Program-made: the position numbers and the translations under genes
Shown here: positions 38,102-61,615 of the stretch, piece after piece
Layout: every line of letters begins with the position of its first letter
Position numbering within the stretch: the stretch's first letter is position 1
The notes under the pieces: generated by a model
Databases searched by the model: none
Told to the model about the DNA's origin: nothing
Seen by the model: only the letters and a program-made list of their open reading frames with translations
DNA from: Lentinula raphanica
Lineage: Eukaryota > Basidiomycota > Agaricomycetes > Agaricales > Omphalotaceae
Reading direction: 5' to 3'
Assembly: GCA_027919835.1 (NCBI GenBank)
Contig: JANVFP010000033.1
Location: 545,290 to 609,289 of the forward strand
Length of the DNA: 64,000 nucleotides

Positions 38102-38226
38102 GCCGAACTTTGAACTCTCACCATCATCTGCCCCGAAAACTCCCACGGTTGAAAACCTCGGAGGAAAGGGATTTTGCAGAGGATTAAGTCAAGTAGTAGG
38201 CATTTAAAAGCGAATTCTCCCTCAGA

Positions 38227-39548
38227 ATGGGCGACGCAACGAGCTTGCATAAGCGGAAGAACCCCCCAGACCCGGGGAAAGACACCGAGACAACTCCAAA
38301 AGGTCCGAGGACCAAAGCCACACATGTTCCCCCTACTCATCCAACATCGCCCACGCCACAACGATACAAAAATACCGCTGCCGAACGTGCCGCGTCAAGA
38401 AAAGAAGGTAGATATGACCCAATAAAGAACACGCCAACTCAGAACCCAACAACGATACGGCGAGGCGAAAACCACTCACCGGCACCCTCTTTGAATGGAC
38501 GGGACGGGAGGGAAAGTCAGCTATCGAATAACTCGGAACCCGGGCCCATGGACCAAGACTGGATACAGCCGAATCAAGACACGAATCGACAGAACTACCC
38601 CCAACCCCATCAGTACATTCCCCCACAACCAGCTCTGGATGAACGTGCAATACGCACGGCATCCATCTTCTTCGGGATGGACCAGCTGGTCAAAGACCTG
38701 AGAAGTGCCATCCGAGAAGGAAGTTTACCCTCAAACTTCGACGAACAGATGGGATCCTCCGGGGAGGAACTCGTGGACCTGCTCGCCCAAATTGGGGTTA
38801 AAGGACGAGGAACAACGGACAAGGTAACCCAAGCTATATCAAAACTGACGGAGTCCTTTGCAGAAGCCAGGAAGACCGACACGGCAAGACTGAATGAAAT
38901 CGAGCGAGCGCTGGGAATCAACACCGCGGGTAGCGAGAGACCCAACTGGGCAGCGGACACATACGCGAACCGCGTATCGAAGAGTCCCACACAGGTGAAT
39001 CCGAAAACCCCCACGAACAAACAGGTAACACCTAGAACGAGTAAAGAAATGGAACGCACGGCCCAGTTCGTGGTACACTTTGCGGAGCCCATCCCAGAGG
39101 AGACGCGTAAGGACCCCTGTTCCATTACCAGAGATCTGAATACCTTCATAGGACTACACCTCGACATTGGGAAGACCCGAGTTGCCACGGCGAAATGGAA
39201 CTTCAGCGGTAATCTCGTTATATCAGTACTGACCGGCCAATCAGCGGCTCCCCTCGTGCCCTATTTCCGCGACTTCCAGGAATTCTACACGGTCAATGCC
39301 AACGTACCAGTGGACACCAAACTAAACAAGGTATGGCACAAGATCATAGTCGATGGAGTCTCAACGGGGAGCCAGTGGAGGCTTGCGAGCGGAGTCACCC
39401 CGAGACCCCATAACCCAAGCGAACTCAGAGAAGAACTGGTAACGTACAACCCAATACTCGAAGGAGTGGAACTCGCACTAGACCCTAGGTTTGTAATACA
39501 GCCATCAGAGCTGGCACACAAGAAGGAATCCTCGATCCAGTTCGCGGT
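38227..39548 (+). pseudogene. LINE ORF1, 5' part (gag-like)
   Basis: Begins MGDATSLHKRKNPP. The first 130 residues are basic and Pro/Gln-rich. The part around residues 275-395 (for example TAQFVVHFAEPIPEE and LHLDIGKTRVATAKWN) resembles the RNA-binding core of Tad1-group ORF1 proteins. The frame is cut after QFAV by the LTR element at 39549. The continuing codons (TCA GAC AGC...) resume in the same frame at 56809, which shows that the insertion is simple and without loss. Confidence 0.92.
39544..39548. repeat. target-site duplication of LTR element, left copy
   Basis: GCGGT is repeated at 56803-56807. The duplication could be 4 to 6 bp (GCGG to GCGGTA), because T and A at the border are shared by flank and LTR. 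Confidence 0.85.
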
Positions 39549-41246
39549 AACGAGGTATAAAGTCGGTTCTTAGTATAATGCCTTATGACAGGTCACTTAG
39601 CACGAACACAGAGTACGACTTCACGGATTCGTCAATCAAATTGTATTTATAGCAAGGTGTGGGGCGTTGTCAGAGATTCCGCACTATCTTATATCTCGAG
39701 TCGAACGCAGTCTTGTGAGATCTTTTAGATCAGCAATACTGGTCAGCAGAACGAAGTGACACGGATATACCAGTCGTAAGATCTGGACTAAGGGGTTTGT
39801 TTTGAGTGGCTTCCACTCGGATAAGGGTTTTTAGGCTCGGAAAGCAACGGGGTACCAGACGTTATGGTAGACCAATCGATTCCGCTCCCGGGTGAAGCAG
39901 TACTGATCACTATTCTCAGTAAAACCTCGAAGATCACGCAGATCACCAATCACTACGTGTCAACTTGAACAGAGCCACCAAAACTCTGCACGTTCACTCG
40001 GCACAACCTGAGACCAAGTCCTCTGTATCTCCGGAACGGAGTCTACCTTCAACTATCAAGTGACAGACACCAAGTCAAACCACTCAAAAGTCGGGCTTAT
40101 CGCGATGAAGTAACACACTTAATCTGCAAGGTCCGGTACGGCTTAGAAGCCTTTACTCCCATGTATGGATGAAAAGGATTACCAGTTCAGAGAGATCTGG
40201 GCGCAAAACTTGTTTCATTTGTGCGGATACAGGTCTTTAAGTACACTACGAAAAGTCCAATACCCGTATTTGTCCTTGATCTAGTAGATCTAGCTATTTC
40301 TACGGACGGAGTCCGATAATATACACTTAAATAGTAAAATATGACTGAAACGATACAAACGCGCAAGGAAATAGTAAAGAAAACAGAGAAAAAGATGAAA
40401 CTTGTCCGTATTTCGTCGTACTTTCGCCAGATCTAGAAGACCAAGCAAGTTCCGACCATGGTCGGTGCGGCATCCACATGCTAGGGTGCCTAACTCGTCA
40501 GAGTGGCTCCTGCCTGTGTTGCTCAAGTGTTTCCGACGAATTTGCTTCCGCGGAATGGTAGTGGTCTTCCCAAGTTAATGAGATAGACTCGTAACAGCGG
40601 TTGATCTCGCGGATCAGGTAGGTCTGGTCCGTAGCTTTCGAACGGTATGCATATAGCCTGGTGTTCTGGAGCGGACAACGAAGATAAATGCTTCAGAAGT
40701 GTTTTCCGTAGGTTTCCGCGCGTTTCCGTGAGTGCTGGTCAAAGCTGTACATAGCATACGCTATATCCCAGTTTAGAACTTGAACATATGCGTGTTTCCG
40801 TTGCGGGTTTCACCCGTACTGCCACGGAAATGCTAGATCATCATGTTTCCGACGGTTTCCGCTACTTTGCGTAGGGTTTCCGTGTGGTAACTCGTCCGGA
40901 TAGGCTCTCATTGTGTCTGATCTGCTAGATCAAGTGAAATTTCCGTCATCACAGCCAAGTACCTAACTCAGTTGTGCCGATCCGGCAGATCTTGATACTA
41001 AGTCGATATTCCCTTGGTGTGCTCGTACCAGTAGTCAGCATTCTTGAAGGATCCCCGACCAAGGGTGCGAGCAATAGCTCTAAGTGGATATTCATGGCTG
41101 ATCCTGCCAAAGGATCTGTATCCTAGCTTATACTGATACAAGTTTGACTGCTAGTTCGGGCTCACTACAGTCCTTATTGATACTATGCAACGGTCTAAGT
41201 TGATCTTTTTGATCATTGCACGCCTGCGCGGAAAAACCGCGCAACA
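39549..41246 (-). repeat. 3' LTR (left copy)
   Basis: 1698 bp, matching 55109-56802 with about four substitutions (all transitions) and four single-base indels by eye. On the element strand it starts TGTTGCGCGG and ends near CCTCGTTA, so the usual TG start is present but the end is not CA. It contains paired GATC sites and a dense cluster of (T)TTCCG motifs (40529-40950). Confidence 0.95.
40529..40950 (+). promoter_or_regulatory. (T)TTCCG motif cluster in the LTR
   Basis: At least nine (T)TTCCG words on the plus strand and one CGGAAA lie in about 420 bp (near 40529, 40545, 40701, 40712, 40722, 40793, 40825, 40845, 40855, 40875 and 40938), several spaced about 10 bp apart. The same cluster is in the other LTR (about 56085-56505). 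CCG/CGG triplets are the half-site read by Zn(II)2Cys6 proteins, and the element encodes a protein with that cysteine spacing. Confidence 0.5.
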
Positions 41247-41263
41247 TCTCCCCCAAACTAAAG
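41247..41263 (-). other. polypurine tract next to the 3' LTR
   Basis: On the element strand the sequence directly before the LTR reads CTTTAGTTTGGGGGAGA, ending in a G/A run that abuts TGTTGCGC. This is the expected place for the plus-strand primer. The 16-mer recurs at 45165-45180. Confidence 0.75.
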
Positions 41264-41282
41264 ATCTGACCGTCCCCGGTCA
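41248..41282 (+). repeat. 16-mer plus TCCC-loop hairpin, copy 1
   Basis: CTCCCCCAAACTAAAG (41248-41263) is followed three bases later by the perfect hairpin TGACCG-TCCC-CGGTCA (41267-41282). The second copy, upstream of gene B, has the same 16-mer and loop but a different stem. Confidence 0.7.
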
Positions 41283-41702
41283 TCGCTATGGGTAGTGTAG
41301 GCTCGTATCCCTTGACAGGAGTGGTACTGTAGCTGATCCGACAGATCAATCACTTTTCCGCAATATTCTGACTTGATTATACCCGGTGATCTAACAGATC
41401 AAGTTGATCCGTTGATCTTAGCACCCGTACCGACAACTCCGCTGTCCTCTTGTCGAAGTCGCTAAGTCCTCGGTTTGTTATCGGCGCTTAATTTCCGAGT
41501 GTGATATCATGACGTAAATCACGCTTCTAATTCTATCACATCACATACACACTTCCTCGAAACAACTTCTTTTCAACATTTTACATACTATCCCTATGCC
41601 TAGGCCTGGGATTAGTAAGTGCTGACAAAGGTTCAACGGACTTGGAAAATTTTCTAAGTTCGTTTCTTCCTCTCTCCCATCGTTGTCCTCGCTCTAGACA
41701 CG
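41283..41702 (+). promoter_or_regulatory. upstream region of antisense gene A
   Basis: About 420 bp between the hairpin and the gene A start. It has two perfect TGATC-N5-GATCA sites (41334-41348 and 41387-41401), a CRE-like TGACGTAA near 41513, and a pyrimidine-rich stretch (CTTCCTCTCTCC) before the ATG. A 5' UTR intron is possible (GTAAGT near 41618). Confidence 0.4.
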
Positions 41703-44448
41703 ATGGCCTCCTCATCGAAAGCGTCCTCTTCTAAGAAGAGAATCGAGCTTCCTCCGGGCAAGATGAAGAAATCCTACTTATTCCCAGCCGACGCACTCAT
41801 TCGTGACTCCCCTACGACGGTGTCTTCCCTGGCGACCCTTTCCATTAACAAGGACGTTCGCCCTGCGGGAGGTACCTTCAACACAGAGGGCGTCCTTTTC
41901 TTACCAGCCACTCCTGCTGAGAGTAGACGCCTTCAGAAAAGCTGGAAACAGTTTCCCAACTCGTTTTCCTCTGCTTTTGAACTCCCTCGCTACGCTTCCC
42001 CAGAGACAGCCGACCTTAGCACTTCCCTCTTTGTTGACACCTCATCCCAGGTTCCTTCGACGTATTATCCCAGCTCCTTTGTTCGCCTTGTGGATTCCTT
42101 CTCAAAAGGTCCTGCGACCCGTGCCGAGGGCTACTTGTTGTACCAAGCTATTGCCTCCCTGCAAGTGGCCGTGTCCCACATCATCCATAAACACGCGTCC
42201 AGGGCTCGAAACCGTGAACTGATACTAGAACTGTTAGAGTCGGATCGTATTACCGCCTGCTTGGTTTGTGTTTTCTCCCTTTTCAGCGGTTTCGGTACTT
42301 ATCCAGACCGTCTAGGATCACTATCGCTCGTTTTGGCATCGGGGGCAGGATTGTCCTCTCTTCGCGGCTCTCTTTATGGCTCTATTCTGCGATTATTGTG
42401 AAAACCTTCTTTCGATCGAGGAGTACCAAGAGTACCTGTATGACGAAGAGGAGCGGACTGGCGGAGGCATGAGTAAGCGGAGCCGTCGCCAGATAAAGGT
42501 ACGATTTTAGCTGCATGTCGTCGCGCCTCGACTAATCCTGCTTTTGCTTCTGCCAACAGTCTTCCTTTCCGGATGTCTCGGTAACCCTTACCTCCCTTGC
42601 CATTCCACTGCCTCTGGATCCTTCCACCAAGGAGGGCCAGCTAATCATCACCGTGTGTCAGAAAGGGCCTCCGGGCTCTCAGCTCATTCATCCCTACTCC
42701 CATGTCTCGCTTCTTCCTGACCCTTCAGGGTTTATTCGTGCCGTTCCCCGGAGTCTGACACCAAATGAGGATTCCGATTCCGAGCATTCGCCCGTGCCTG
42801 TACGTTCTCCCGTCAAGAAACGTCGTCCTCCTCCTGCTGCTTATTCCGACATCGAACTTGACGATGAAGAACCCGACACGCCCGAACCCTTGGTTGCCGA
42901 CGACTCGGAGCCCATTGAACTGGAGATTCCTAGTAAGTCGTCGTTGGGTTGTCTATGACGTCTACTGATCCTGCTGGACCTGCTACCAGAAATTCGCGAA
43001 AGCATTGCTCGAGCTGCCAAGGCGCGTGGTCGTGTGGGGGCCAGCAAAACCGATCCTCCGGCGAGCCAACCCTTTGTGCAACTTCCCGCGAAGAGGGAGC
43101 GACACGTTACTCCGCCTGATGATTCATATGTACGTCGACCCCACTGCTCCCATCCGTTTCCTTCAAACTGACTTGATCACAGATCCCCGAAGGTCCTCCT
43201 GCCAAGAAGAAGAAATCGCAAAAGGCAGCAGGAAAATCCCGGGCAGCTTCCCCTTCCGCATCCCTGGTGCCAGAGGCCGGACCTTCCGAACCTCTACCTC
43301 TTCGTATCCAAGAGGGTCCCCCGGACTATTTTGAAGGCGACGACACCCGCGATCCTGGTCTGACCCTTTCTCTTCTCAATCCAGCTTTCACCATTACCAC
43401 CGGGTTTGCTGATATCTTGCAAACGTCCTCTAATACTCGCCGCGGCGCCCGAACCCCACTTCTCCGTCCCCCCAAGTTTTTAATTGCCGATGAGTTGAGG
43501 GATCTAGGTGCTTTCTTGTCCACCCCCGAAGTCACCTTTTCGCTCCAGGCCCTTAGCCGCTACAATTATCTCACTTCTCGCCATTTACGAACACTCAACT
43601 CCCGCACCCTTCCGGCCCACGATTCCATCTATTCCACCTCCAATTGTCTTACTTGTCTTAGTCGCGGGCTCGTCTGTGAAGGGGGCAGCAAGTCCAATGG
43701 ATCCTGCAACAATTGCGAGGCCACCCATCGTACATGTCCTAGCTGCCTTGGTCTTGAAGAACACCAGGATCGCTTTCGCGCCATCCATCAAACCGTACAA
43801 GGCTTTCCCGTTGGGTACGCCAAGGCCGTGGATGAGTTCGAGAAATCCTTAGATCGTTACACGCACCTCCAGACCTCTTTCGAACCTCTCTTTGCTGATG
43901 CTCGTCAAGACCTGTCCGCGAAAATGCGCAACCTGCGTGCGCAGGGGTTTGACGCCAACGTTGTACTTTCGCACTGGGCCGAGGAGAATCCCAACACCCC
44001 CGTTGATTTCGAGACCGTGTCTTGGTTCTCCACGCTCTTTGGTTGGAATACTTCTTGCAACGTAGCTCAGTTCCTCTCGAATCCTTCTGACATTGCTAAA
44101 CTAGAGGCTTTCCTTCTTCAACTCGATCCCGAACCGCCAACTTCTTCGAAACCTCTTCCTCAGAGCCAGCCTTCTCCTTCCAAAGCACCCACGTCTTCGG
44201 AACCCGTTGTCGGTACGGTGCGTCAGCCAGTTCTGAAGTCGAAGCATCGCCCCGCCGCCGCCGTTCCTGTCAACTTTCCTTTACGCCGTGCCTTTCAGAC
44301 TCCTTCCACCTCATCGGCACCACCTCCCTCTGCAACCGTGGTGGGTGAGGGATCGGATGACGAAGAGGGGCCTGCGCAAACCACTCCCGGTCGAAGCCTT
44401 CTTACCGAGTACGAGGGGGAGGGAGATGACGACGCTGACGCGGACTAG
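41703..44448 (+). CDS. antisense accessory gene A: 840-aa protein with Zn(II)2Cys6-like cysteine cluster
   Basis: Lies inside the LTR element, opposite to gag-pol. Five exons (41703-42263, 42316-42498, 42560-42932, 42990-43129, 43193 minus 10 = 43183-44448) total 2523 nt with every intron phase consistent, giving 840 residues. The N-terminus is basic (MASSSKASSSKKRIELPPGK). A folded-looking domain spans about residues 60-240 (for example LVDSFSKGPATRAEGYLLYQ, CPLFAALFMALFCDYCENLL). A Ser/Pro/Lys linker follows, with KKRRPPP and KKKKSQKAAGK as likely nuclear signals. At about residues 574-604 the cysteines are spaced C-x2-C-x6-C-x9-C-x2-C-x6-C, the Gal4-type Zn2Cys6 pattern. The tail is acidic (EGEGDDDADAD). 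A DNA-binding role is inferred from spacing only; the surrounding residues are not strongly basic, so a structural zinc cluster is an alternative. Confidence 0.8.
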
Positions 44449-45164
44449 ACATTTTGCGTATGGTATTGCTTTAGCTATAACTTATGGTAGTGATCGGACT
44501 CGCACATCGTTTTTCTGAGCCAGACTACCGCAGTTTTTAGTGTTGTACCATTGTACCTGATTCTTCTTCTTGGTCCCCAGTATCTAGCACCAATCTTGAA
44601 TGTCAATGCCCTGTGGGCTTTATGTTGTCTTTGCATTATCTGAGATCTCCTTAAGACTCCCTAAATTACTCTTCAAGATACTTGAGATATCCTTTAAGAT
44701 GTCCTCTGAGTTTTCTTAAGCTAGCTTGCAAAGCCACTGAGTTTCCTCTAAGTTGACTTTAAGTTTTAGGTCTCTTGCCCTTAACCAACACCTGATAGAG
44801 CACTGTAAGTACTTTATTGATACCATGTACTCTTCTAAGTGTTTGTCTTTTGACATTTCTACAGCTGTTGCTTTGCTCTTGTCATTCCTGAAGCACAAAT
44901 TTCGGTCTGATCAGCTAGATCATTTTGATCTGCTAGATCAGACCCATCAATGTCGATTCTTCGGTTATCAAGTTGGTGGTTGCAGCCTCATATGGCATGT
45001 TAAATCCATTGGGCTTTACAAATTGCAAGCTGCGTCGGTTTTAGATCTAAGTCTTTGGATTGTACGCATGCTTAAGCTGTCAATGAGCACAGGTCTTTTA
45101 GATCTCGTAAAATTTTCATGAAAATTTCTGAAATTTCGAAAATTCTTGAAACACCGTGTGTCCC

Positions 45165-45199
45165 CTCCCCCAAACTAAAGCTCAGCAGTCCCCTGCTGA
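45165..45199 (+). repeat. 16-mer plus TCCC-loop hairpin, copy 2
   Basis: The 16-mer CTCCCCCAAACTAAAG (45165-45180) is identical to copy 1, then one base later comes the perfect hairpin TCAGCAG-TCCC-CTGCTGA (45182-45199 region). Same loop, different but fully paired stem. It ends about 70 bp before the gene B ATG. Confidence 0.7.
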
Positions 45200-45216
45200 C
45201 CCGAAGCATCGGAAAA

Positions 45217-45225
45217 GGTATAAAA
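45217..45225 (+). promoter_or_regulatory. TATA box of gene B
   Basis: GGTATAAAAG lies about 50 bp upstream of the gene B start codon and about 20 bp downstream of the hairpin. This compact arrangement argues that gene B has its own promoter inside the element. Confidence 0.6.
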
Positions 45226-45268
45226 GCCCTTGATCTAAGAGATCCGACTCCCAACTCAACGAAAAAAA

Positions 45269-47192
45269 ATGGCTCCCAACTACGAGTACCACAATCTCCC
45301 TATCTCGCTTGAAGCTGACTTTGCCAACTGGTGCGTCGACGCGGAGTACTGGGCTGCTCGTGTTAGCGATGACAAGAGCCTGGCCTGGCAAGGTGCCAAG
45401 TACAGTTCTAGCAAGGACAAGGTCGAGTTCACCACGTCCAACAAAACGATCTTTTTGAACGATGTCCGTTGCGCGTACACTCATTTGGTACGGAAACCGT
45501 CTGGTCTGCTAGATTTAGCAATTTTAACCATTTTCCGCTAGCTCATTCGAGTGTCCCGCGACGCAGCTTGTATGAACAAGGAATATCTGCGGGCGTACGA
45601 CAATCTCGCGGAGGAATTACTTTCCGCCGTGAATGCGTACCGCACGATCCGTGACGAGATCCCTAAGCAGTTTCCCAAACTCTCGGAGGAGGGAGGGAAA
45701 AACGCTGAGATCGTCAGTTTCTACATTCAGCTGAACGACCTTCGTCGCAAAAAGCTCCGTGAGGACCAAGGCAGACAGGGTTCTCCTGCTGTCAGTACTC
45801 GCGGACCTAGTGTTCCACCTGCTGATCCTGAAGGACCGTCGAAATCCAAGTCGAAAGGCAAGGAAGTTGCGACTGATCCAGCAGATCCAGCAGTTTCCGA
45901 TGCTGATGCCAAGTTCATGGCAGAGGTGGTGCGTTTCCGCAACTATTTTCGAAGATTCGTTTATTGACTAAAGGTTCCAGGATGCTGATCTTGCAGAACA
46001 TGGTCCTTCTCCTCCAAAAGGTCCTCGAGGCGCACTTGCTAACCATTTACGAGGCCGCGGACTTCCCATGCGAGGCCACTTCCGTAGTCCACGCGAGCAA
46101 CGCTTTGAAATGCAAGAATCACTGCGTATGGGTGTTCCTGTTCCGCGGTATGACCCTCCGGTAAGTATTGGACCTTGATCTGTTAGATCAGCTGCTAAAT
46201 GTTTATCCAGCCTCGTCGTGCTGAACTCGTCATCGATCATATCATTGGTATGGACGAAAGGATCAAACACGCCAAGGAGGAACGTGAAAAAGGCGAGAAG
46301 GGGAAGAAGACCGCGGAAGCGACTCCTCCTCCTCCTACCAGGCCCTCTACTCGTTCCAAAAGCAAGAAGAAATCCCCTGACGACGAACCGGCTGCTCTGG
46401 CAGATCAGGATGTCTCTGTACGTGGCCGGTCTTGTAGATCAGACAAGTTTATGACTAACCCGTGCCATAGATGGCTGACGAAGTCGAGGATTCTACTCCT
46501 GCGAAGGCTAAGACCAAAACCAAAAAGCGCGACACCGTCGACGACGATGACACTCCGAAGTCTTCCAAGACCAAGAGCAAGCGCAAACGTTCCGAACGCG
46601 ATGTCGGTCCCGCGGACGGTGATGAGACTGAGCGGGCTCTGTCTCCTCAAGCACATAGTACTGTGCACGCTGTAACCGCGATCTCCCAGCCTCATGCTGT
46701 TGGTGAAGATCTGATTAAGAGGGTGAAGTATTCGTTGGAACTCGCGGATACCAGTGAGTACCACTTCCATTTTCCGCTTTTTCGTACGGACTTCTACGGA
46801 AACTCGTTGATCTGCCAGATCACGCATTTTCCGTTAGATATTTTCGCTTTGCATAGTCCGGAGTCCTTCCGCAAATCATCGTGTTACTGATTATTGTTAC
46901 AGGTACCCCCGACGATACAGATCATCGAGATCTCGTGCAACTTCTTCACAACATCGGACTCGCCCACAACCCGGAGGTTGAATCGTACACCGAAGAGCAG
47001 TACAATGCCTTCATCAACTTCCATACGACCCAACTCTTCGACTGTGTTATGAAAGCTCGTTTCTATGCTCACCGTGGGGAGGCTAGTCAACGGATCATCG
47101 ACAACGCCAGGGCGGCTCGGAAGGCTTCGTTCATTCTGCCCTGTCGCCTATTTTTATACCTGTACTTTTGTCAAGTCAAGTATCATTGGTAG
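45269..47192 (+). CDS. antisense accessory gene B: 521-aa basic protein, unknown function
   Basis: Second gene antisense to gag-pol within the LTR element. Six exons (45269-45487, 45542-45928, 45981-46160, 46211-46417, 46471-46753, 46903-47192) sum to 1566 nt with consistent phases. The N-terminal about 170 residues look folded (YHNLPISLEADFANWCVDAE, LLSAVNAYRTIRDEIPKQF). The middle is rich in Lys, Arg, Ser, Pro and acidic residues with likely nuclear signals (KSKGKEV, RSKSKKKSP, KSKRKRSER). A last ordered part contains LVQLLHNIGLAHNPEVESY and FDCVMKARFYAHRGEASQR. Several introns carry TTTCCG or TGATC-N5-GATCA motifs. No family recognised; the 3' end faces the integrase end 113 bp away. Confidence 0.78.
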
Positions 47193-47304
47193 TTTTTGAG
47201 GTAATCCAGTGGCAACTAAATTCCTCGAGTGATTATTGAGATAGAATAAGTTGAAACATCGCGGAAACTCCACCAAACTAACTGATCTGTTGGATCAGGC
47301 ATGT

Positions 47305-48315
47305 TTAGCAAGATTTCCGACGACCACTTCGTCGTGGACCATTCGGTAGAGACGGATTCGCCTCTTCCTCTTGATCTTCGGACTCAGCAGCCTTCAGCTC
47401 CTCCGGATCAAGCTGTTCAACAGGCGGAACCAGTGGTGGTTCAGCGGAATTCGACTGATCATCACCGGAAATGTTTATTCGAGGGACCGTACTGAAAATA
47501 AAGTCCTCCACTTCCTCAGGTTCGTCTTCCTCATCCTGTACCATAGACTCTAACTGCTCGGGCGACAGATCTATCAGATCATGTATATTTTCCGGCAGTT
47601 CAATCGGTTCGTAACGAGCATGATGCGGGATCACACGGAAAGCACCCACTTTGTCTTTAAGTACAGTGCCATCCATTTCCGCAATGATATATGCACCTCC
47701 TCGTGTCCTCCGGATGACAACCATAGGTCCACGATATCGAAGGTACATTTTCCGATCCAAATTCTTCTCGATGGCAGTGTTCCGTACTTGTACTAAGGTT
47801 CCCGGTTTGAAATCCCAGTCCTTAATTGTGTACTTGTACTTTTCCTCGAAAACTCTCGCTTCTCGACGTTTGTTCTCGTCGATCCGTGATTTCATGTTCT
47901 CGACGAAGGAACGATGTTTGGAAAGAGCCTGAGCCCGGAAGCCCAGTAACTCTTCCCGTGATAGTATTCGATTTGGTGGATTGACCAAATATGTAGATTC
48001 AACAATATCGAAAGGTAGCAGAGGTTCCGTACCGGTAGCTACAAAGTATGGTGAACAGCCTAAACCTCTCCGTGCAGTAATACGATCAGCCCAAAGTATC
48101 GGTTTCAAGAAGTAGTACCATTTTGACAGATCTCCCGCACACGCTTTCGCAAGTGCTTGTCTCAGATCAAAGTGAGCACGTTCAATCTTTCCGTTAGCTT
48201 GTGAATTGTAAGGCGATATCTGTATTCCACGGATCCCGTATTTCTGTTCGAGCCATCGCAACATAAGCTTCATCTGTGGTGCATTGTCCGAGACCACGAT
48301 TCCGGACATCCCCAT
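47305..48315 (-). pseudogene. integrase, catalytic core and C-terminal part
   Basis: Continues the integrase in a different frame from 48270-49778; a one-base deletion near 48300 separates them. It has the second catalytic Asp in VVSDNAPQ and the Glu in NGKIERAHFDLRQAL, then a C-terminal domain (WDFKPGTLVQVRNTAI, YRGPMVVIRRTRGGAYII) and a long acidic tail. No chromodomain. It ends 113 bp from the stop of gene B. Confidence 0.88.
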
Positions 48316-49778
48316 CTACATATGATGTCTTCAAAGAACCATTCCGCGAGTGATCTCGCGTTTTCAACTCTCAGTGCCCTAGCTTCCGACCAACTCGACA
48401 AGGAATCCCTTCCGTGAACGATATATCTGCAACCATTACTGGCCGGAGACATAACCATCGTATCGATATGTATCTTTTGGAACAAGGATGGCGTGAAGGT
48501 CACCGTTGGAGGGATCCGTACCAAAGACCTAAGTCGATCTTGGCAGGCTTGACATGTTTTCACATACCACTCCACGTCTTTCTCCAGATCAGGCCACCAA
48601 AACCTCTTTTCTAAGAAGTCTTTCGTAGCATATGTACCCTTGTGTCCTAAGGCATCATGAGCACTGTGCAATAGATACATTCGTTTTTCCGGTTCAACCA
48701 CTAAACGCAGTTGATCTGTGGATGGTTTCCGGTGGAACAGTCGACCTTCCGAGTCTATTGAAAAGGACAGCGTTTTCCGGTCCATTTCCGCTCGTTGTCT
48801 CTTGTCCCACTTCGCGAATTGCTCCGCATTCGGGTCCTTAAGCCATGCTCGGATTTCCGGTAACTGCTGATCTAGACGATTTCCGCCATCCGATCTATGA
48901 GATATCGGATATTTGTGATCAGGTCCCCAAGTAGCATTGTCGGGGATCGCAGTATACTGCAGAAACTGAGAGGTCAAAGGCATTCCCGAGGCCTCTAAAC
49001 GTTCTTTGAGGAATGCATGCTGGATCTCTTCCTCCCGGGCAACTTGAAGATCTTCCGCAAACTCATCTTCAATGGTCTCGCAAAAGTATCCTGTCCGGGG
49101 ATCTATATGATCTTTGAATGATTCAAAGGGCAATGGATCATCCGCTTCGTCCGCTTTGAAGAACCTAACGTTGTTGGAGTCATCTGCATCTTCTGCTAGA
49201 TCCTCTTCGGTTTCCCGACGAGGGGTAGTCCAACCTCCCGGAGGTCTTCGAGACAAACCATCAGGTCCAAAGGTTGCTCCTTTGACATGGATCAAATCGA
49301 AATGGAATTTACGGATATCTTCAATCCAACGGTTGATCGTAGCGTTTGGACCACTACTCGGATTTTCGAGCATTCCTTGGATATAGCTAGCATCCGTTTC
49401 TACCGTGAGTTTCCGACATCCATAAAGAAGATAGTGGGTTGCTCGGAGAGCAACCTTCAAACCATAGAGTTCACGCTTAGATTGAGAAAACCGGGCTTCA
49501 CGTTCATTATACGGGATGGATCCGAAGTAATTATAGTAAATCTTCGTCTGATCTACAGGATCAATCTGATAGATGTAAAATCCTGTACCCATGTAAGAAC
49601 TATCCACTGCTAAGTGTGTTTCCCAGTCATATACTATGACTCTTAAGGCTGGTGCATTACGGACTCCGTCTTTCAACAGGTCCATGGCTATGACATGCTC
49701 ATCCTTCCACTCAAACGGAATATTCGCCGTTAATTTGGTCAAAGGTGAGGCTTTCTTAGCGTAATTGTGAATGAACAT
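48270..49778 (-). pseudogene. RT connection, RNase H and N-terminal integrase
   Basis: A 502-codon open stretch of pol. The first residues (PLTKLTANIPFEWKDEH) are the RT/RNase H tether typical of Ty3. RNase H acidic residues are in HLAVDSSYMGTGFYIYQ, SKRELYGLKVAL and TVETDASYIQGML. GPDGLSRRPPGG ends the domain. The integrase zinc-binding motif is HDALGHKG...CQAC, and the first catalytic Asp is in HIDTMVMSP. The frame then breaks (near 48300). Confidence 0.9.
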
Positions 49779-49843
49779 CCGGAGCTGACCAACAGTTCCC
49801 AGAAAGGCTCGGACCTGGGTCTTAGAAGAGCACGGAGGCCAAG

Positions 49844-51408
49844 TTAGACCGTAGTTGCGATTCTATCTTCCGGTTTCTGTCCTTCGTACGTGCAACGGTG
49901 TCCAACCACTACAGTTTCAGCGCAACACAGGAATGCTTTAGGTCCCGAGAAGGTTCCGCCGCAATACCGCATCCGCTGAATGATTCGGTTCACATTTTGG
50001 AGATGCTCCCAGACAAATCGTCTGATCAAAGATTTTCAGGGATAGTTTCGTATCCGCCACCCGGTAATTCATAACGAGTCCCGGGGCCTCTGATAGGAAC
50101 ATCATCGACGTATGGAATAGTATATTCCGGAATTTCATCTCGCATCATGTAAGTTACATCATCATGGAATATCGGAACAGAGTTCGTCCAACCCATAGGC
50201 AACTTTACGAGACGGTGTGGTCCGTACGGGGTTGGAATGTTGTCAGATCTCGCGAACTAACATCGAGGGGTCGTTCATCATAACCCACATAGATATCCAA
50301 CAAACCACCACAGGCACGACCCGCAAAATGACGAGCAATATCCGCGGTAGCAGGAGGAATCCCCGGAGTGTTGAATGGTCACCTGTTCAGGGTTCCAACT
50401 ATGTACTAACGAAGACTCGTTCCATCTTCTTGACCACACAAACCATTTTGAACGATAGCTCGAGCAAGATGGTTCATAAACTCCAGCATCAATCTTATCC
50501 TTGATGATCTTACAAACCTTCTCGAAGATTCCGGGAGGAATTGGAATATTTCGTTCGACCCAGGGCTCATGAGGTATGACCGGAATTCACGGGAGGAAAG
50601 AAGTCCTCTCTGAATGTTCCGCCCTCGGAAGCTCCCAAGCAAAACCCATTTCCTGCAACTTCATCATATGATGAACTAGCTTCATTTCCTCGTCCGTAAG
50701 GAAACCTTCCGCATGGTTTTCTCGATGATCTCTTTCCGTTCTTGCGTATACCGAATACCCGGCGTGAATTCCGGAGGATGAGTTGGTAGATCTGGTAGAT
50801 CAGCCAAAGGATCCCCGTAAATGTGTCTCCGCACACGGAATTCTTCCGGTAAATCAGCCTTGACAGGGCGAACTTTCACCGCTACAGGCTTTATTTTCGA
50901 GAACCGAAGACCGAAACTGGCTGATCTGGCAAAACACATCATTATATGCGCATATATGCTGGTCAATCGTCTTGTTCTTGAGTTCCCAGAGCTTAACACG
51001 ATGCATCGCAGCCTCCAAATCTTGGGTCATTGAAGACAATTCCGCATCTTTTGTTTGATCTACTTGATCTGGTAGATCTTCCGTGTTATCATATGGCCGA
51101 GTTAACCCGTGTAAGTCTTTCCACCTAACATCCTTTGTCATGGACTGGTAAAAGGTCTCCTTCAGGTCCTCAACGGTCGGATTAGCTCTGAATCCTTCCT
51201 TCCATGGGTTGATCACACGATTTTGTTGATGATCTACACCTTTGTTCAGGTATAGTGATATGGTTTCGGCAATTCCGGGGTGTGACTTCTCGATCGTTGG
51301 CAGACAGCATTGTACATACACGTCCGCTAATTCTTCATTGGAGAAGGTACCTCGTTTCACCTGATTCGACTCTATAACCATTCCTCCGCTGAGCATCCCA
51401 GTACCCAC
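49844..51408 (-). pseudogene. reverse transcriptase region, frameshifted
   Basis: RT sequence spread over several frames. Recognisable pieces include MQKIFSW-independent leader helices (51408-50854), then FSKIKPVAVKVRPVKADLPE, GTFREDFFPP, the palm sequence near 50300, YVDD at about 50085-50096 (IPYVDDVPIRGPGTRYELP) and FVWEHLQNVNRIIQRMRYCG. Frame changes are needed near 50850, 50640, 50250 and 50025 at least, so this copy cannot make an intact RT as it stands. Confidence 0.82.
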
Positions 51409-51455
51409 TAAGAGCGATTTCTACCTCTCCCTGGTCGCTACTCAGATCCCAGAGG

Positions 51456-52930
51456 TTATTCAAAAATTTGGTTGCGGAACTTTCTCTGCCTCCTCTTGAG
51501 TGTCTTCCCGTCTTGATTCGGGTTGCACTGTTGAGTTGGCTGTGATACTTTCGTTCCATCACCTTCTTGGTGCTCTCGGTCCATGTCCTTTCGGATATGT
51601 ACCCATGGTATACCGTTTTCCAGTATTCGGATCCGTAATCGTAAGTTCCTGATCACCCGATCCAAATGTCTGAATGACACTCTCAGTTAACACATCAAAC
51701 GGCCGTCCCAACAGTATTTCGAAGGGAGCCTTTTCTTGAACATGTAACTGCAAATACACTGTGACTGGTCCAAATCGAAAGGGCACATTTCGGGCTAAAC
51801 CTTTGGTCCGCGGATCCCGCCATGTACATTTTGCATCTGTATGGTGATTCCGGGATCCAAACCTAGACCTAGGCCTAACGCCACGCTCATATCGATGGCG
51901 ACTATCTGTGATCCTGAGTCCAGGAGGTTCTCTACTTCGAGATCTTCCCGATCATTCACAACAGGCCACACTGCACGGAGACCATTGCCTATGGTAGCAA
52001 CTATGGTCATATCTCGTCGTTCATCATTCTCGTCTACATCACTTAAGAATGATTCTACTGGATCTACTTGAACAAACGCTCCTGCTTTCATCCCATCCCG
52101 ATCCTCAGATAATCTTTCAAAAGCCCAAGCTTCGGGTAATGCTAGATCATCCACGGAAATGACTTGTTCGTCTTCGGAATCATCATTTGAAAGTGTTTCC
52201 GTAGCTAGATCTTGTTGATCAGCCACGTTCAGCAGCATTTTCTTTCGATCTTGCGGAAGTACTCGCTTTTCCGTTCTTTCGTCCTGTATCTTTTCGATCT
52301 TCCCCGAAAGCTGTAAAGCTTCGGAAGAAGTCAATTCAATCGTCTTTCGCACTATCCGGTCAGCAAGCTCTTCCTCTAGACCAGGCGTAAACAGTTCATT
52401 CTGCAGCCTGTATTTTGGTGCCTTCGAAGATCCCTTAGATTCAGGTATCTTTTCCGGCTTTGGTTGATTTCGAGGGTGAGGTGTAACTTCTCTGGGCTGA
52501 ACATCATCAAATGGTCTTCTCGGATTTTCCGTACGAGGAGGTGACGGATCGCGGAATCGTACTTGCTTCGATTTCCGTTGATCTGCCTGATCAGGCTCGC
52601 GTCCGAACCTAAAGCACTCTCATCCGTTAAATCGTCAATGGTCACTGACTGTATCCTTTCCAAAGCAGCTTCCCTCAGTGATTGAGAAGAATCGGGGTCT
52701 GATCCAGCAGATCTGTCATGATTAGGCGTAGAATTGTCCGGATTGGACTTCGGTTTTTCGGATGTTTTGTTTTTACTAGGGTTATTTCGATCTATGGGTA
52801 TATGCACCCCGTCAAAGCGTTTATTCTTGACGGCAGGTATTGCTTTTGGTGAGTTAGGCTTTGGGGCACCCTCATGAGTTGTTGCCTGTTGCTGAGACCG
52901 TGTCCTTGGCCCAGAGGTCAACTCAATCAT
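51456..52930 (-). pseudogene. protease region between gag and RT, frameshifted
   Basis: Encodes an acidic linker (for example VISVDDLALPEAWAFERLSE) and a retropepsin-like core with the catalytic DSGSQIVAIDMSVALGLGL and a later ILLGRPFDVL (the usual ILGR-type flap-side motif). Frame breaks occur near 52550 and around 51780, 51600 and 51400. Confidence 0.8.
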
Positions 52931-52938
52931 TGGATTCC

Positions 52939-54664
52939 TCAGTTTCCCGACTCGTTCGTGTACACCGTAGCCACACCATTGCTAGATCTCCCTTGCACCA
53001 TCTCCGCCAGATTGGCAATGACCATCCAAGCTGGGGATCCGGCCAACTGTTCCGAGTAATCCTCATTGTCCGGGATCATCTCGTTCATCATCGTCGAAAC
53101 CTCGGGCCATCCTTTGGCCTGACCATATTTCATGATCTTTTGGTATCTACTCTCACTTCCGAAGTTGTTCGGTAGCGGAGACCCATCCTTCAACTTAAGA
53201 CGCTTTGGATCTTGCGGATCACGCATAATCCAACCTTTCCCTAAGAGTTCCAAGAACATTGGACAACTTTGCATCATATGGTTCGGTTCCCGACAAAGGA
53301 AACACAACATCTCAGACCTTTGACCTTGTGCATTATTCGGATTCGTGTTAATGATTCCGCGGGGAGGCCCACTGTTTCCGGGATTACCACTACCAGAAGC
53401 GACAGTATGGGGCTGCGCCCGTTGCGCAGGTTGAACATTTCCGGTCTTGATGTTAGCCAGCATTTGAGCCAACGTCTCAAGTTCCTCTTTGTAGGTAGCC
53501 TTAAGTGCTCCCAAATCTTTGACCAACACACTGTACTGGTCCCTATTTGCAGCTAGTGCTCTTTCCGTTTCCTCGGAAGCCTCTCGTTTCACTTCAACGG
53601 GCTTAGCTGGAGACCGGAAGAAATGCGAGAGATCCGGTACTTCTTCTTTGATCACCGGAGGACCACCAATCGGAACGTATACGCCTCCTCTTGAGTGGGT
53701 TTCCGCATTGAAGACCACACCATCCCGACTTGTTACCGTCCGGTACAACGATTCCAAGGGTGGGTGCCTTGCTACGGCCTCTGCTGCTTCCTTGTACTCT
53801 AAACAGATATGGATCATCGACCCGACGTTTCTCGTATACGCCTCTTGAGTGGGTTTCCGCATTGAAGACCACGCCATCCCGACTTGTTACCGTCCGGTAC
53901 AACGATTCCAAGGGTGGGTGCCTTGCTACGGCCTCTGCTGCTTCCTTGTACTCTACAAACAGATATGGATCATCGACCCGACGTTTCTCTACGCGGAAAG
54001 CAGGTACCTGCTGTTGAACCTTACGATTCACAGCTTTCCGTAACTCGTCATCGAATGCTGACAGGAAAAGAGACACCAATTCCGTGTTTCCTATCGCCGG
54101 AGGCGGTTTCAACAACTTATTGGCTTCTACCTCCATCAACAGACAATATCCGAGCAACCTATCTCCGTCCCGGACACCCAAAGGAGCATAGTTCTGTACG
54201 ATCTGCAAGAGCGTATTCTTCGAACCCATTGGTCTCCCTAGAGATGCCGGGAATCTTTCACACAAGGAACGCAGAAAACAGTCCGCGTCCTCCCTTCCCT
54301 CCTGCGCGCCAGGAAGATGCTCGAGAGCCTGCTTGGTCTGAAGGGTCATCCAAGAAAAGATCTTTTGCATCTTCACCTTCTCGGAGGTAACTTCCGTAGC
54401 CTGGAACGTGTTCAAACAGAACCTCACCCACTCGGGGATCATGCTCGGATTGGCCAAGTCCAGGATCATAGCAGTTTTGTGCGTAAGCGGAAACTTGGTA
54501 TTGTTATACTCTGCTTGTTCCGCAGGAGTCAGTTCAGGAGGACCAAGCATCCTTATGATGTCGAGTTGATCCTCCGGTCGTTTTTGTTGGGCAGCCGGGT
54601 TTGCTGGTGCGTTAGCATTCGCTCCCGCGGCTCCCTGATCATTTCCGTTATGTACTTCGGACAT
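52939..54664 (-). pseudogene. gag, disrupted by a tandem duplication
   Basis: Begins MSEVHNGNDQGAAGAN; the frame upstream is open for over 300 bp without an ATG. The capsid part has FPLTHKTAMILDLANP, MQKIFSWMTLQTKQALEHLP and LLGYCLLMEVEANKLL. The nucleocapsid zinc knuckle is CFLCREPNHMMQSC (CX2CX4HX4C) near 53290. A roughly 157-bp tandem duplication (53676-53990) shifts the frame between the two halves, so no single protein spans gag in this copy. Confidence 0.87.
53676..53990 (-). repeat. tandem duplication inside gag
   Basis: Two nearly identical units of about 157 bp (starting at 53676 and 53833) differ by a 3-base deletion near the start and a 2-base difference near the end (TCTAAACAG versus TCTACAAACAG). 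The unequal lengths break the gag frame. Confidence 0.85.
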
Positions 54665-55087
54665 ATTGTTGGGTAAAAACAGTCGTATCAAATCAAATGG
54701 TTCGGGTTGTAATGTAGGATCTGAACTAGATTGCGGATCTGGTCCAACAGTAGCTGCCTTCTGTCTACCGTTTCCTGGCACTACGTTAGATCTCTTCGTT
54801 ACTGGTTGTTCCGAAGATGGTCTAGCAGCTCTCCCGTTATCTGGATTGCTAGTACTCGCTCTTCCGAGGTTTCTCGGATCGTAAACAGGTACAGAGGGTT
54901 TCTTTGTTGCGCGCTTTCGCTGATCTGAAGCTTGTATCGCTGGATCAAAGAAATCTGCTGAGCCCGCATTCTTCGAAGTCCGAGTAGCTCTTGGAGCTAT
55001 TTTTAATGATCAAATAAATTCGATCAAAGGCAGTAGTTTTGAGAAATCAAGAAGATCTCTCGAGTTCGACCAAAATATAGATTCCAC

Positions 55088-55105
55088 CCCTCGCGGTGGG
55101 CTCCA
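55088..55105 (-). other. primer-binding site of the LTR element
   Basis: On the element strand, three bases after the 5' LTR, the sequence TGGAGCCCACCGCGAGGG starts with TGG (complement of the tRNA CCA end). It predicts a primer tRNA ending GGTGGGCTCCA; a U discriminator base is characteristic of tRNA-Cys, but the identity is not verified. Confidence 0.65.
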
Positions 55106-55108
55106 GAT

Positions 55109-56802
55109 AACGAGGTATAAAGTCGGTTCTTAGTATAATGCCTTATGACAGGTCACTTAGCACGAACACAGAGTACGACTTCACGGATTCGTCAATCAAA
55201 TTGTATTTATAGCGAGGTGTGGGCGTTGTCAGAGATTCCGCACTATCTTATATCTCGAGTCGAACGCAGTCTTGTGAGATCTTTTAGATCAGCAATACTG
55301 GTCAGCAGAACGAAGTGACACGGATATACCAGTCGTAAGATCTGGACTAAGGGGTTTGTTTTGAGTGGCTTCCACTCGGATAAGGGTTTTTAGGCTCGGA
55401 AAGCAACGGGGTACCAGACGTTATGGTAGACCAATCGATTCCGCTCCCGGGTGAAGCAGTACTGATCACTATTCTCAGTAAAACCTCGAAGATCACGCAG
55501 ATCACCAATCACTACGTGTCAACTTGAACAGAGCCACCAAAACTCTGCACGTTCACTCGGCACAACCTGAGACCAAGTCCTCTGTATCTCCGGAACGGAG
55601 TCTACCTTCAACTATCAAGTGACAGACACCAAGTCAAACCACTCAAAAGTCGGGCTTATCGCGATGAAGTAACACACTTAATCTGCAAGGTCCGGTACGG
55701 CTTAGAAGCCTTTACTCCCACGTATGGATGAAAAGGATTACCAGTTCAGAGAGATCTGGGCGCAAAACTTGTTTCATTTGTGCGGATACAGGTCTTTAAG
55801 TACACTACGAAAAGTCCAATCCCGTATTTGTCCTTGATCTAGTAGATCTAGCTATTTCTACGGACGGAGTCCGATAATATACACTTAAATAGTAAAATAT
55901 GACTGAAACGATACAAACGCGCAAGGAAATAGTAAAAAAACAGAGAAAAAGATGAAACTTGTCCGTATTTCGTCGTACTTTCGCCAGATCTAGAAGACCA
56001 AGCAAGTTCCGACCATGGTCGGTGCGGCATCCACATGCTAGGGTGCCTAACTCGTCAGAGTGGCTCCTGCCTGTGTTGCTCAAGTGTTTCCGACGAATTT
56101 GCTTCCGCGGAATGGTAGTGGTCTTCCCAAGTTAATGAGATAGACTCGTAACAGCGGTTGATCTCGCGGATCAGGTAGGTCTGGTCCGTAGCTTTCGAAC
56201 GGTATGCATATAGCCTGGTGTTCTGGAGCGGACAATGAAGATAAATGCTTCAGAAGTGTTTTCCGTAGGTTTCCGCGCGTTTCCGTGAGTGCTGGTCAAA
56301 GCTGTACATAGCATACGCTATATCCCAGTTTAGAACTTGAACATATGCGTGTTTCCGTTGCGGGTTTCACCCGTACTGCCACGGAAATGCTAGATCATCA
56401 TGTTTCCGACGGTTTCCGCTACTTTGCGTAGGGTTTCCATGTGGTAACTCGTCCGGATAGGCTCTCATTGTGTCTGATCTGCTAGATCAAGTGAAATTTC
56501 CGTCATCACAGCCAAGTACCTAACTCAGTTGTGCCGATCCGGCAGATCTTGATACTAAGTCGATATTCCTTGGTGTGCTCGTACCAGTAGTCAGCATTCT
56601 TGAAGGATCCCCGACCAAGGGTGCGAGCAATAGCTCTAAGTGGATATTCATGGCTGATCCTGCCAAAGGATCTGTATCCTAGCTTATACTGATACAAGTT
56701 TGACTGCTAGTTCGGGCTCACTACAGTCCTTATTGATACTATGCAACGGTCTAAGTTGATCTTTTTGATCATTGCACGCCTGCGCGGAAAAACCGCGCAA
56801 CA
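55109..56802 (-). repeat. 5' LTR (right copy)
   Basis: 1694 bp, about 99.5% identical to the left LTR by eye, arguing for recent insertion. At its outer edge (56780-56800) it has a perfect hairpin GCGCGG-AAAAA-CCGCGC, read from the plus strand, just inside the terminal CA. It carries the same GATC pairs and TTTCCG cluster as the left copy. Confidence 0.95.
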
Positions 56803-56807
56803 GCGGT
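56803..56807. repeat. target-site duplication of LTR element, right copy
   Basis: GCGGT, identical to 39544-39548. LINE ORF1 sequence resumes here. Confidence 0.85.
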
Positions 56808-57404
56808 ATCAGACAGCAAGACTGCGGAGGACATCCTACGAGGGAGAACGTTAAACATGTTCGGGAAGACATGCAAGGTGCGTAAATTTCAAGAGCGTAC
56901 CCCGACGACCCCCCAGTGTAGGAAGTGCAAGACGTTCGGGCACAGAGCCGATAAATGCAAGTCCCAAGACAAGTGCGCACTCTGCGGACAAGAACACACC
57001 GAGGCCCAACACACGCTCCAGTGCGGGTCCTGCAAAGCAAACCCAAACTACGAAGAGCTGGACTTCGACGAGGAGTCCATCCAGAGTGGCATCATAGCAC
57101 AGTGCACACATAACCTAAGGTGCGTGAACTGCAGTGCAAAAGGTTTAGACTCACTACACAGCGCTACGAGCGGGACTGCCCCGAGCGGATCCGCAACATG
57201 GGAACAACCAGAGACAACAACCGGGCTCAGCCAAAAGGTAACACGGCGACTGACCAGTTTCAGACCGTCACGAAGAGACGCTCGAAGGCAAAGAAGACAC
57301 CGACTCCTGGGGCAGTTAGCACCCAGGGAACATCAGGGTCCCGCTTCGAGGCACTAGACCTAACCTCCCAGGCTGGCAACGACAAAACGGTGACCACAAC
57401 ATGA
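56803..57404 (+). pseudogene. LINE ORF1, 3' part with zinc knuckles
   Basis: Resumes the frame of the left part (SDSKTAEDILRGRTLNMFGK). It has three cysteine-rich knuckles: CRKCKTFGHRADKC, CALCGQEHTEAQHTLQC and CVNCSAKG. Around 57155 a one-base deletion shifts the frame; the expected continuation (RDCPERIRNMG) is in the next frame, which ends with TGA at 57402-57404. That stop lies 9 bp before the ORF2 ATG, which suggests termination-reinitiation. Confidence 0.85.
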
Positions 57405-57413
57405 CCGTTGATC

Positions 57414-61500: not shown

Positions 61501-61615
61501 AGAGATAAACGACTGGCTCAACGAGGAGAATGATGAACCCGGAAACGAAGAAGCAGACTGGAGGGAAGAAATCGTCGATGAGGACGACTTCACCGAAGAC
61601 CTTGAAGACGAGTGA
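58450..61615 (+). pseudogene. LINE ORF2, reverse transcriptase and RNase H part
   Basis: About 1050 open codons in the frame after the shift. RT: AIAVALRKPRKPDYSKPRAY, FDIKGFFDFVN, NGTPQGSPLSPILSAFY, LLMYVDDGKVY (catalytic YVDD) and VKWLGVYLDRKLTFNHH. RNase H: LIIYTDGS, EAYDGEVVAL, FFTDSASSVDAI and WTPSHTGIQGNERADKLAKQ. A C-terminal zinc motif, CPCGEDLQTREHILRQCP, follows, as in Tad1/I-group LINEs, then an acidic tail. Apart from the upstream shift it is uninterrupted. Confidence 0.94.

What the first reader, a model, noticed from the sequence alone, without database searches (positions are those of the whole stretch)
41703..44448. LTR retrotransposon carries an antisense, intron-containing gene with a Zn(II)2Cys6-like cysteine cluster
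Seen: five exons with consistent phases give 840 aa antisense to gag-pol, between pol and the 3' LTR. Cysteines at about residues 574-604 are spaced C-x2-C-x6-C-x9-C-x2-C-x6-C. Known: Zn2Cys6 is the main fungal DNA-binding class, and antisense extra ORFs between pol and LTR are described for some plant gypsy elements. Inference: the element carries its own regulator or nuclear targeting factor. Introns in an antisense gene can survive retrotransposition, because they are not spliced from the element's genomic RNA.
Basis: partly seen in the sequence, partly recalled or inferred. Interest (0 to 1): 0.82.

Follow-up and report, generated by a model that had tools for sequence, protein, structure and literature searches.

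The report
Jumping gene with swappable antisense gene
In a mushroom genome, nearly identical copies of one jumping element each carry, on the opposite strand, one of many very different old versions of the same protein gene, as if the element keeps a deck of exchangeable type cards whose purpose is unknown.

Summary
An 840-aa, five-exon gene ("gene A", 41703-44448, +) lies antisense to gag-pol, between pol and the 3' LTR of a 17.25-kb Ty3-type element (39548-56802, minus strand) of the mushroom Lentinula raphanica. Its six-cysteine cluster is kept in relatives down to 31% identity. Spacing fits Zn(II)2Cys6; Pfam and the usual basic residues do not.

Beyond the finding: a second spliced antisense gene ("gene B", 45269-47192) lies beside it. 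Of 46 gene A loci tabulated in the genome, 41 have gene B and 36 antisense pol downstream. LTR, pol and gene B are nearly identical between copies; gene A is not. In five matched copies synonymous difference is 4.7-6.8% in pol, 5.5-12% in gene B, 62-80% in gene A exon 5, with purifying selection. Twenty-nine copies carry 15 gene A types; type is uncorrelated with the nearby 3' UTR (r=0.08). So old gene A versions are shuffled as cassettes within a young backbone. A GATC-N5-GATC dyad is enriched in the element, most densely outside genes.

Best guess: a nuclear, element-encoded regulator kept diverse by selection for rare types. Function is untested.

The parts
39548..56802 (-). Whole LTR element, Ty3/gypsy order, 17.25 kb, inserted in ORF1 of a LINE with a GCGG(T) target duplication
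   Evidence: LTR pair; flanks read (LINE frame ..QFA|VSDSK.. continues across the empty site); RNase H then integrase zinc domain in one ORF
39548..41246 (-). 3' LTR (7 GATC-N5-GATC dyads)
55108..56802 (-). 5' LTR
55089..55105 (-). Primer binding site TGGAGCCCACCGCGAGG, 2 nt inside the 5' LTR
   Evidence: sequence; tRNA not identified
41247..41282 (-). Polypurine tract next to the 3' LTR with a 16-nt hairpin upstream (third of three copies)
41703..44448 (+). Gene A, 840 aa, five exons (41703-42263, 42316-42498, 42560-42932, 42990-43129, 43183-44448), hypervariable between copies
43645..43737 (+). Six-cysteine cluster of gene A (residues 574-604)
43201..43221 (+). Lysine-rich stretch (KKKKSQK region), nuclear-localisation-like, conserved as KKRR-type
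   Evidence: function not tested
44449..44905 (+). 3' UTR / spacer of gene A, variable; its last 330 nt are uncorrelated with gene A type
   Evidence: (output partly cut)
45162..45199 (-). Second polypurine-tract-like copy with hairpin, just upstream of gene B
   Evidence: same place in family 2 locus L064 at 2641
45219..45226 (+). TATAAAAG box about 43 nt before the gene B start codon
   Evidence: sequence
45269..47192 (+). Gene B, second antisense gene, 520 aa, six exons (45269-45487, 45542-45925, 45981-46160, 46211-46417, 46471-46753, 46903-47192), conserved between copies
47268..47298 (-). Third, weaker polypurine-tract-like copy with hairpin, just after pol
   Evidence: family 2 L064 at 381
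47305..55009 (-). gag-pol, frame interrupted in this copy
   Evidence: other copies have pol in open frames up to 1458 aa

Best explanation
Gene A is an accessory gene of the retrotransposon, read from the opposite strand and spliced, that makes a nuclear protein with a cysteine cluster. SHOWN: it belongs to the element; its protein is under purifying selection in the copies compared; about 15 versions of great age sit in 29 copies whose LTR, pol and gene B are young and nearly identical; version and nearby 3' UTR are uncoupled, so versions have been moved by recombination. INFERRED: exchange happens by template switching between co-packaged element RNAs of different type (or by gene conversion between DNA copies); the protein acts in the nucleus on the element's own LTR and promoters, as activator, anti-silencing factor or self-repressor; many versions persist because a rare version has an advantage, for instance against type-specific silencing by the host or by resident copies. 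The dispersed GATC-N5-GATC dyad is the likely DNA target of a protein of the system; gene A's conserved cysteine region or gene B are the candidates.
For: Belonging: of 46 gene A loci 41 have gene B on the same strand within 9 kb, 36 antisense pol within 25 kb (33 within 9 kb), 35 both (hits typed, second fragments of a copy and family 2 hits left out). Age contrast in five matched copies, 10 pairs (five of the eight copies with pol held): pol aa identity 99.4-100%, pS 0.047-0.068; gene B exon 2 pS 0.055-0.122; gene A exon 5 aa identity 45-85%, pS 0.62-0.80. Eight pol copies, 28 pairs: median dS 0.064, dN/dS 0.02. Types: 15 at 90% aa (167-aa core) among 30 loci = 29 copies; 2 of 32 loci dropped as short. 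Flanks with over 300 nt aligned: unlike-type pairs 96.5% identical upstream (124 pairs, 17 copies) and 95.7% downstream (243 pairs, 23 loci), like-type pairs 97.4% (12) and 96.6% (10). Edges: DNA similarity to the window ends between 41678 and 41737 (mostly 5-11 codons into gene A) in the diverged copies and returns between 44566 and 44908, apart from weaker matches, mostly around the cysteine cluster. Recombination: the window copy and C26b share 97% of the 3' UTR stretch but 47% of the gene A core, C40a and C26a the reverse (59% and 99%); r=0.08 over 351 pairs of 27 copies. Parts of gene A are also reassorted (P0020/P0021: N domain 41%, C core 88%). 11 of 26 types at 90% occur under two or more locus-tag prefixes, taken as assemblies (50 of 67 proteins used). 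Dyad: 30 GATC-N5-GATC in one LTR plus interior, at most 5 for any other spacing 0-20, 2 in 46.7 kb outside. Whole genome: 339 strand-wise matches of TGATCTGNNAGATCA (full palindromes count twice), 1 for the reversed control.
Against: No transcript, binding or function data. No Pfam, PDB-sequence or fold match for gene A. The 3' UTR stretch, which codes for nothing known, is as scrambled as gene A (median identity 61%), so diversity there is not only a matter of protein selection. 13 of the 30 dyads lie in gag-pol (11) or gene B exons (2), and the densities in introns and in the B-pol spacer rest on 2 and 1 sites. The dyad does not differ between copies of different gene A type, as it sits in near-identical LTRs; and related family 2 loci, which have gene A and B relatives, nearly lack it (1 in the 9.7-kb and 2 in the 9.9-kb locus). 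Selection for rare types is not tested; saturated dS hinders a search for positive selection. Counts of loci are lower bounds (tool's own note).
Confidence: 0.5

Rival explanations
1. Concerted evolution without selection for diversity: the elements are old lineages whose LTR, pol and gene B were homogenised by gene conversion or recombinational sweeps, while gene A was already too diverged to be converted.
For: The recombination signs fit either direction of exchange; the 3' UTR stretch near gene A is diverged as well (median identity 61%) although it codes for nothing known.
Against: Gene A is under purifying selection in the copies compared (pN/pS 0.13-0.49 at saturated pS in 10 pairs; dN/dS about 0.2 for the five closest pairs) and types recur in several assemblies (11 of 26), which a passive leftover would not predict by itself.
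Confidence: 0.25
2. Host arms race: gene A diverges because it antagonises a fast-evolving host silencing factor, and types simply track host alleles.
For: Anti-silencing proteins of Arabidopsis VANDAL elements are proposed to evolve so (PMC10398659 abstract; PMC5735166 passages); gene A has a conserved lysine/arginine-rich stretch.
Against: About 15 types in one genome is more than tracking one host would need; protein change is slow relative to synonymous change.
Confidence: 0.15
3. Sequence diversity is selected at the RNA level: gene A mRNA is complementary to the element's genomic RNA, and diverged versions avoid small-RNA silencing between copies.
For: Antisense position; synonymous sites are near saturation between types and the 3' UTR is diverged too. 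The dsRNA idea for antisense ORFs is discussed for plant elements (PMC7264820 passages).
Against: Gene B is also antisense and is almost invariant, so its mRNA would still pair with the RNA of the other copies.
Confidence: 0.07
4. Ordinary captured host gene or chance frame in a retrotransposon.
For: Homologues are named only as hypothetical proteins.
Against: 46 loci mostly with gene B and pol, purifying selection, shared introns, a relative in element family 2; no homologue outside L. raphanica among the hits.
Confidence: 0.03

Closest known systems
Antisense additional ORFs (aORF-3R) of plant Ty3/gypsy elements: Grande gene23, RIRE2, Retand (TRP28), PvRetro13
   Same: [quoted passage not shown] Grande product nuclear, TRP28 predicted to bind DNA (PMC7264820 and PMC11963269, passages)
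   Different: No TRP28 or other Pfam match; two spliced antisense genes ('intron' does not occur in either paper's main text); diversity of the coding sequence between copies was not among the passages I saw
Botrytis cinerea Boty element with antisense gene brtn
   Same: Fungal Ty3-type element with an antisense extra gene (named in PMC7264820 and PMC8365987, passages; the 2011 paper itself not seen)
   Different: I had no brtn sequence to compare; nothing on between-copy diversity was seen
VANC proteins of Arabidopsis VANDAL DNA transposons
   Same: Element-specific short motif at high density in non-coding parts including introns (PMC5735166 passages), here the GATC-N5-GATC dyad
   Different: LTR retrotransposon; motif constant while gene A varies; dyads also in gag-pol; binding not shown; no sequence comparison made
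Envelope gene recombination in endogenous retroviruses
   Same: One backbone, exchanged versions of a downstream gene (PMC10536682, seen in search listing only)
   Different: Cassette is antisense and spliced, with a nuclear-signal-like stretch, and varies among tens of copies of one genome
Hypervariable 3' UTR of plant LTR elements (Macas 2009, seen only as a citation)
   Same: Variable stretch toward the 3' end of the element
   Different: By its title untranslated and a source of satellites; here mainly a coding gene under purifying selection

Membership tests
Ty3/gypsy (Metaviridae) LTR retrotransposon | Two LTRs, target duplication, primer binding site and polypurine tract | tested here: met
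   (sites read from the sequence)
Ty3/gypsy (Metaviridae) LTR retrotransposon | RNase H before integrase in pol | tested here: met
   RNase H domains at residues 51-185, Integrase_H2C2 at 389-442 of one ORF; RT seen only as fragments by eye
Zn(II)2Cys6 transcription factor | C-x2-C-x6-C-x5-12-C-x2-C-x6-8-C (recalled) | tested here: met
   49 of 67 homologues match a pattern allowing 8-9 residues in the middle loop
Zn(II)2Cys6 transcription factor | Match to a Pfam zinc-cluster or fungal TF domain | tested here: not met
   none for the window protein at E<=1 (without 11 residues) nor for five homologues at E<=10
Zn(II)2Cys6 transcription factor | Basic residues in the loop after the second cysteine (recalled class feature) | tested here: not met
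   loop reads LSRGLV; only one arginine conserved
Zn(II)2Cys6 transcription factor | Binuclear zinc cluster fold | tested here: inconclusive
   cluster pLDDT about 47
[quoted passage not shown]
Plant aORF-3R / TRP28 proteins | TRP28 domain (PF04195) | tested here: not met
   no such Pfam match
VANC-like sequence-specific anti-silencing system | Element-specific motif dense in non-coding regions | tested here: met
   17 of 30 dyads in about 3.4 kb of non-coding sequence, 13 in about 12 kb of gag-pol, gene A and gene B exons
VANC-like sequence-specific anti-silencing system | Protein binds the motif and removes silencing | not testable with these tools
   needs binding and methylation assays
VANC-like sequence-specific anti-silencing system | Motif changes along with the protein | tested here: inconclusive
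   motif constant across gene A types of family 1 (40 scored LTRs 98-100% identical); two family 2 loci nearly lack it

The most novel reading that the evidence does not exclude
The element family runs a multi-allelic recognition system: each copy bears one of many long-lived gene A types, which decides which other copies (or which host states) it can silence, activate or resist; rare types win, so types are preserved for ages and passed between copies as cassettes, much as mating-type or phage immunity specificities are.
Probability: 0.25. Interest if true: 0.93.

Novelty: new variant of a known kind. Interest (0 to 1): 0.78.

Why it matters
The papers I saw say that the function of antisense genes in LTR retrotransposons is unknown. 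Here one genome offers a natural experiment: tens of near-identical elements that differ mainly in this gene, with about 15 old, selected versions. That shows the gene matters to the element, and makes its role testable by comparing types. It may also be a case of long-kept, allele-like diversity inside a selfish element rather than in a host, and a defined candidate DNA site to test for binding.

Full report
WHAT IS THERE. The window is G000:C33:545290-609289, in an assembly of 49.06 Mb in 75 contigs. The contig lengths I compared equal those given for C8R42DRAFT proteins of Lentinula raphanica, so I take this to be that genome. A 17.25-kb LTR element occupies 39548-56802 on the minus strand: LTRs of about 1.7 kb, 99.5% identical, primer binding site and polypurine tract in place, RNase H before integrase. 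It sits in ORF1 of a LINE; reading across the flanks by eye restores the frame, with a GCGG(T) duplication. gag-pol of this copy is split over several frames; other copies have pol in open frames of up to 1458 aa.

THE GIVEN GENE. Between pol and the 3' LTR lie about 6 kb with two genes on the opposite strand. Gene A is the finding: five exons, 840 aa, exactly 41703-44448. My first model missed 11 residues at intron 1; homologue P0001 corrected it. Gene B (45269-47192, six exons, 520 aa) was not reported; it has a TATA box about 43 nt before its ATG. Splicing of gene A is supported without RNA. Of 15 protein/locus pairs tried, 10 gave an exact exon chain; one of these (P0028/L024) needed implausible extra introns and is left out. 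In the other nine (the window's model and eight annotated proteins, themselves predictions) introns 1 and 2 recur at the same site and phase; five of the nine also share introns 3 and 4 (P0001 has one more), and four instead have an intron at another shared site.

ELEMENT GENE, NOT HOST GENE. Tabulating hits, with second fragments of a copy and family 2 hits left out, gives 46 gene A loci; 41 have gene B downstream on the same strand within 9 kb, 36 antisense pol within 25 kb (33 within 9 kb), 35 both; some of the rest are near contig ends. All 14, 5 and 57 hits of the three protein searches are named L. raphanica, from this and, by locus-tag prefix, other assemblies. A related element family (pol about 77% identical) has the same order with relatives of gene B (27-34% in exon 2) and gene A.

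THE MAIN RESULT. Copies agree nearly perfectly outside gene A and hardly inside it. LTRs: the 40 scored of 302 candidate matches are 98-100% identical. pol: 8 copies, 28 pairs, median dS 0.064, maximum 0.094, dN/dS 0.02; gene B exon 2: 22 loci, some of them the same copy, 231 pairs, median dS 0.094, maximum 0.160, dN/dS 0.03. Gene A exon 5 in 20 loci chosen for long matches: median aa identity 0.52, 181 of 190 pairs with pS at least 0.6. In five matched copies (C33, C13, C23, C5a, C26a; 10 pairs) pS is 0.047-0.068 in pol, 0.055-0.122 in gene B and 0.62-0.80 in gene A, with gene A pN/pS 0.13-0.49. So gene A versions are far older than the backbone they ride in, and are selected as proteins. Clustering 30 of 32 loci (2 dropped as short) at 90% aa gives 15 types in 29 copies. 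Sequence outside is about 96% identical whether types agree or not, like-type pairs being about 1 point closer; single copies compared with the window go down to 87% downstream and 92% upstream. Similarity ends between 41678 and 41737 in the diverged copies (mostly 5-11 codons into gene A) and returns between 44566 and 44908, 118-460 nt after the stop codon; within the gene these copies show only weaker DNA matches, mostly around the cysteine cluster.

RECOMBINATION. Gene A core and the 330 nt of 3' UTR ending at 44919 are uncorrelated (r=0.08, 351 pairs, 27 copies; gaps count as differences in the UTR). The window copy and C26b are 97% alike in the UTR but 47% in gene A; C40a and C26a are 59% and 99%. 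Within gene A, N domain and C core mostly go together (r=0.76, 595 pairs), but some pairs are discordant (P0020/P0021: 41% and 88%; P0025/P0054: 80% and 58%). Types recur among locus-tag prefixes (11 of 26 at 90%, 50 of 67 proteins used). In family 2 one pair of copies is 98% identical over 2.6 kb through gene B and then carries unlike gene A relatives, but one of these is partial.

PROTEIN. Across 35 homologues (31-92% identical to P0003) the best kept parts are the cysteine cluster with its surroundings and a stretch near residue 700; five of the six cysteines are invariant and one nearly so. A lysine/arginine-rich nuclear-type stretch is kept. The spacing fits Zn(II)2Cys6, but Pfam, the basic loop and the model do not confirm it, so I call it zinc-cluster-like only.

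CIS SIGNALS. GATC-N5-GATC occurs 30 times in one LTR plus the interior, against at most 5 for any other spacing 0-20, and 2 times in 46.7 kb outside. Counts: LTR 7 (4.1 per kb), LTR-A spacer 3 (6.6), A-B spacer 4 (4.9), gene B introns 2 (5.5), B-pol spacer 1, gene B exons 2 (1.3), gag-pol 11 (1.4), gene A 0. The fuller form TGATCTGNNAGATCA is matched 339 times in the genome, strand-wise, so that full palindromes count twice; control 1. A hairpin plus polypurine-tract-like sequence occurs three times, after pol, before gene B and at the 3' LTR, and a like sequence at the same three places in family 2 locus L064. Extra tracts could start plus-strand DNA at module borders and favour exchange; this is inference.

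READING. Best supported: an element-borne, probably nuclear accessory protein whose many old versions are traded between copies. What it does is open: activation, anti-silencing or type-specific self-control. Selection for rare versions explains the persistence of types but was not tested; passive homogenisation of the backbone is the strongest rival.

LITERATURE. [quoted passage not shown] VANC/VANDAL offers the nearest parallel for element-specific motifs (abstract, passages). I saw no description of a cassette-like, hypervariable antisense gene in the listings of searches, in a library that lacks most subscription journals.

Noticed in passing
45269-47192 (+): Second spliced antisense gene (gene B, 520 aa), nearly invariant between copies, no Pfam family; the same place in family 2 holds a 27-34% relative.
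   Followed up: yes
41247-41282, 45162-45199, 47268-47298: Three copies of a hairpin followed by a TTTAGTTTGGGGGAG-like polypurine tract at the borders pol / gene B / gene A / LTR; like sequences in family 2 (L064 381, 2641, 6517).
   Followed up: partly
39548-56802: Dispersed dyad around GATC-N5-GATC, enriched in the element and densest in its non-coding parts.
   Followed up: partly
38200-39573 and 56803-61615 (+): A LINE (endonuclease, reverse transcriptase, RNase H domains) is interrupted in ORF1 by the LTR element.
   Followed up: partly
53687-53964 (-): A 124-nt direct repeat (spacing 154 nt, 96% identical) in gag of this copy, where two gag frames overlap.
   Followed up: no
L061 (C25:353432-358130): An element LTR directly beside inverted gag sequence of the family: looks like a nested insertion.
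   Followed up: no
22858-24138, 17207-18103, 14041-14745 (+): Host genes: SWI/SNF-RSC subunit Ssr4, a bZIP factor, and a C2H2 zinc-finger protein below the Pfam cut-off.
   Followed up: partly
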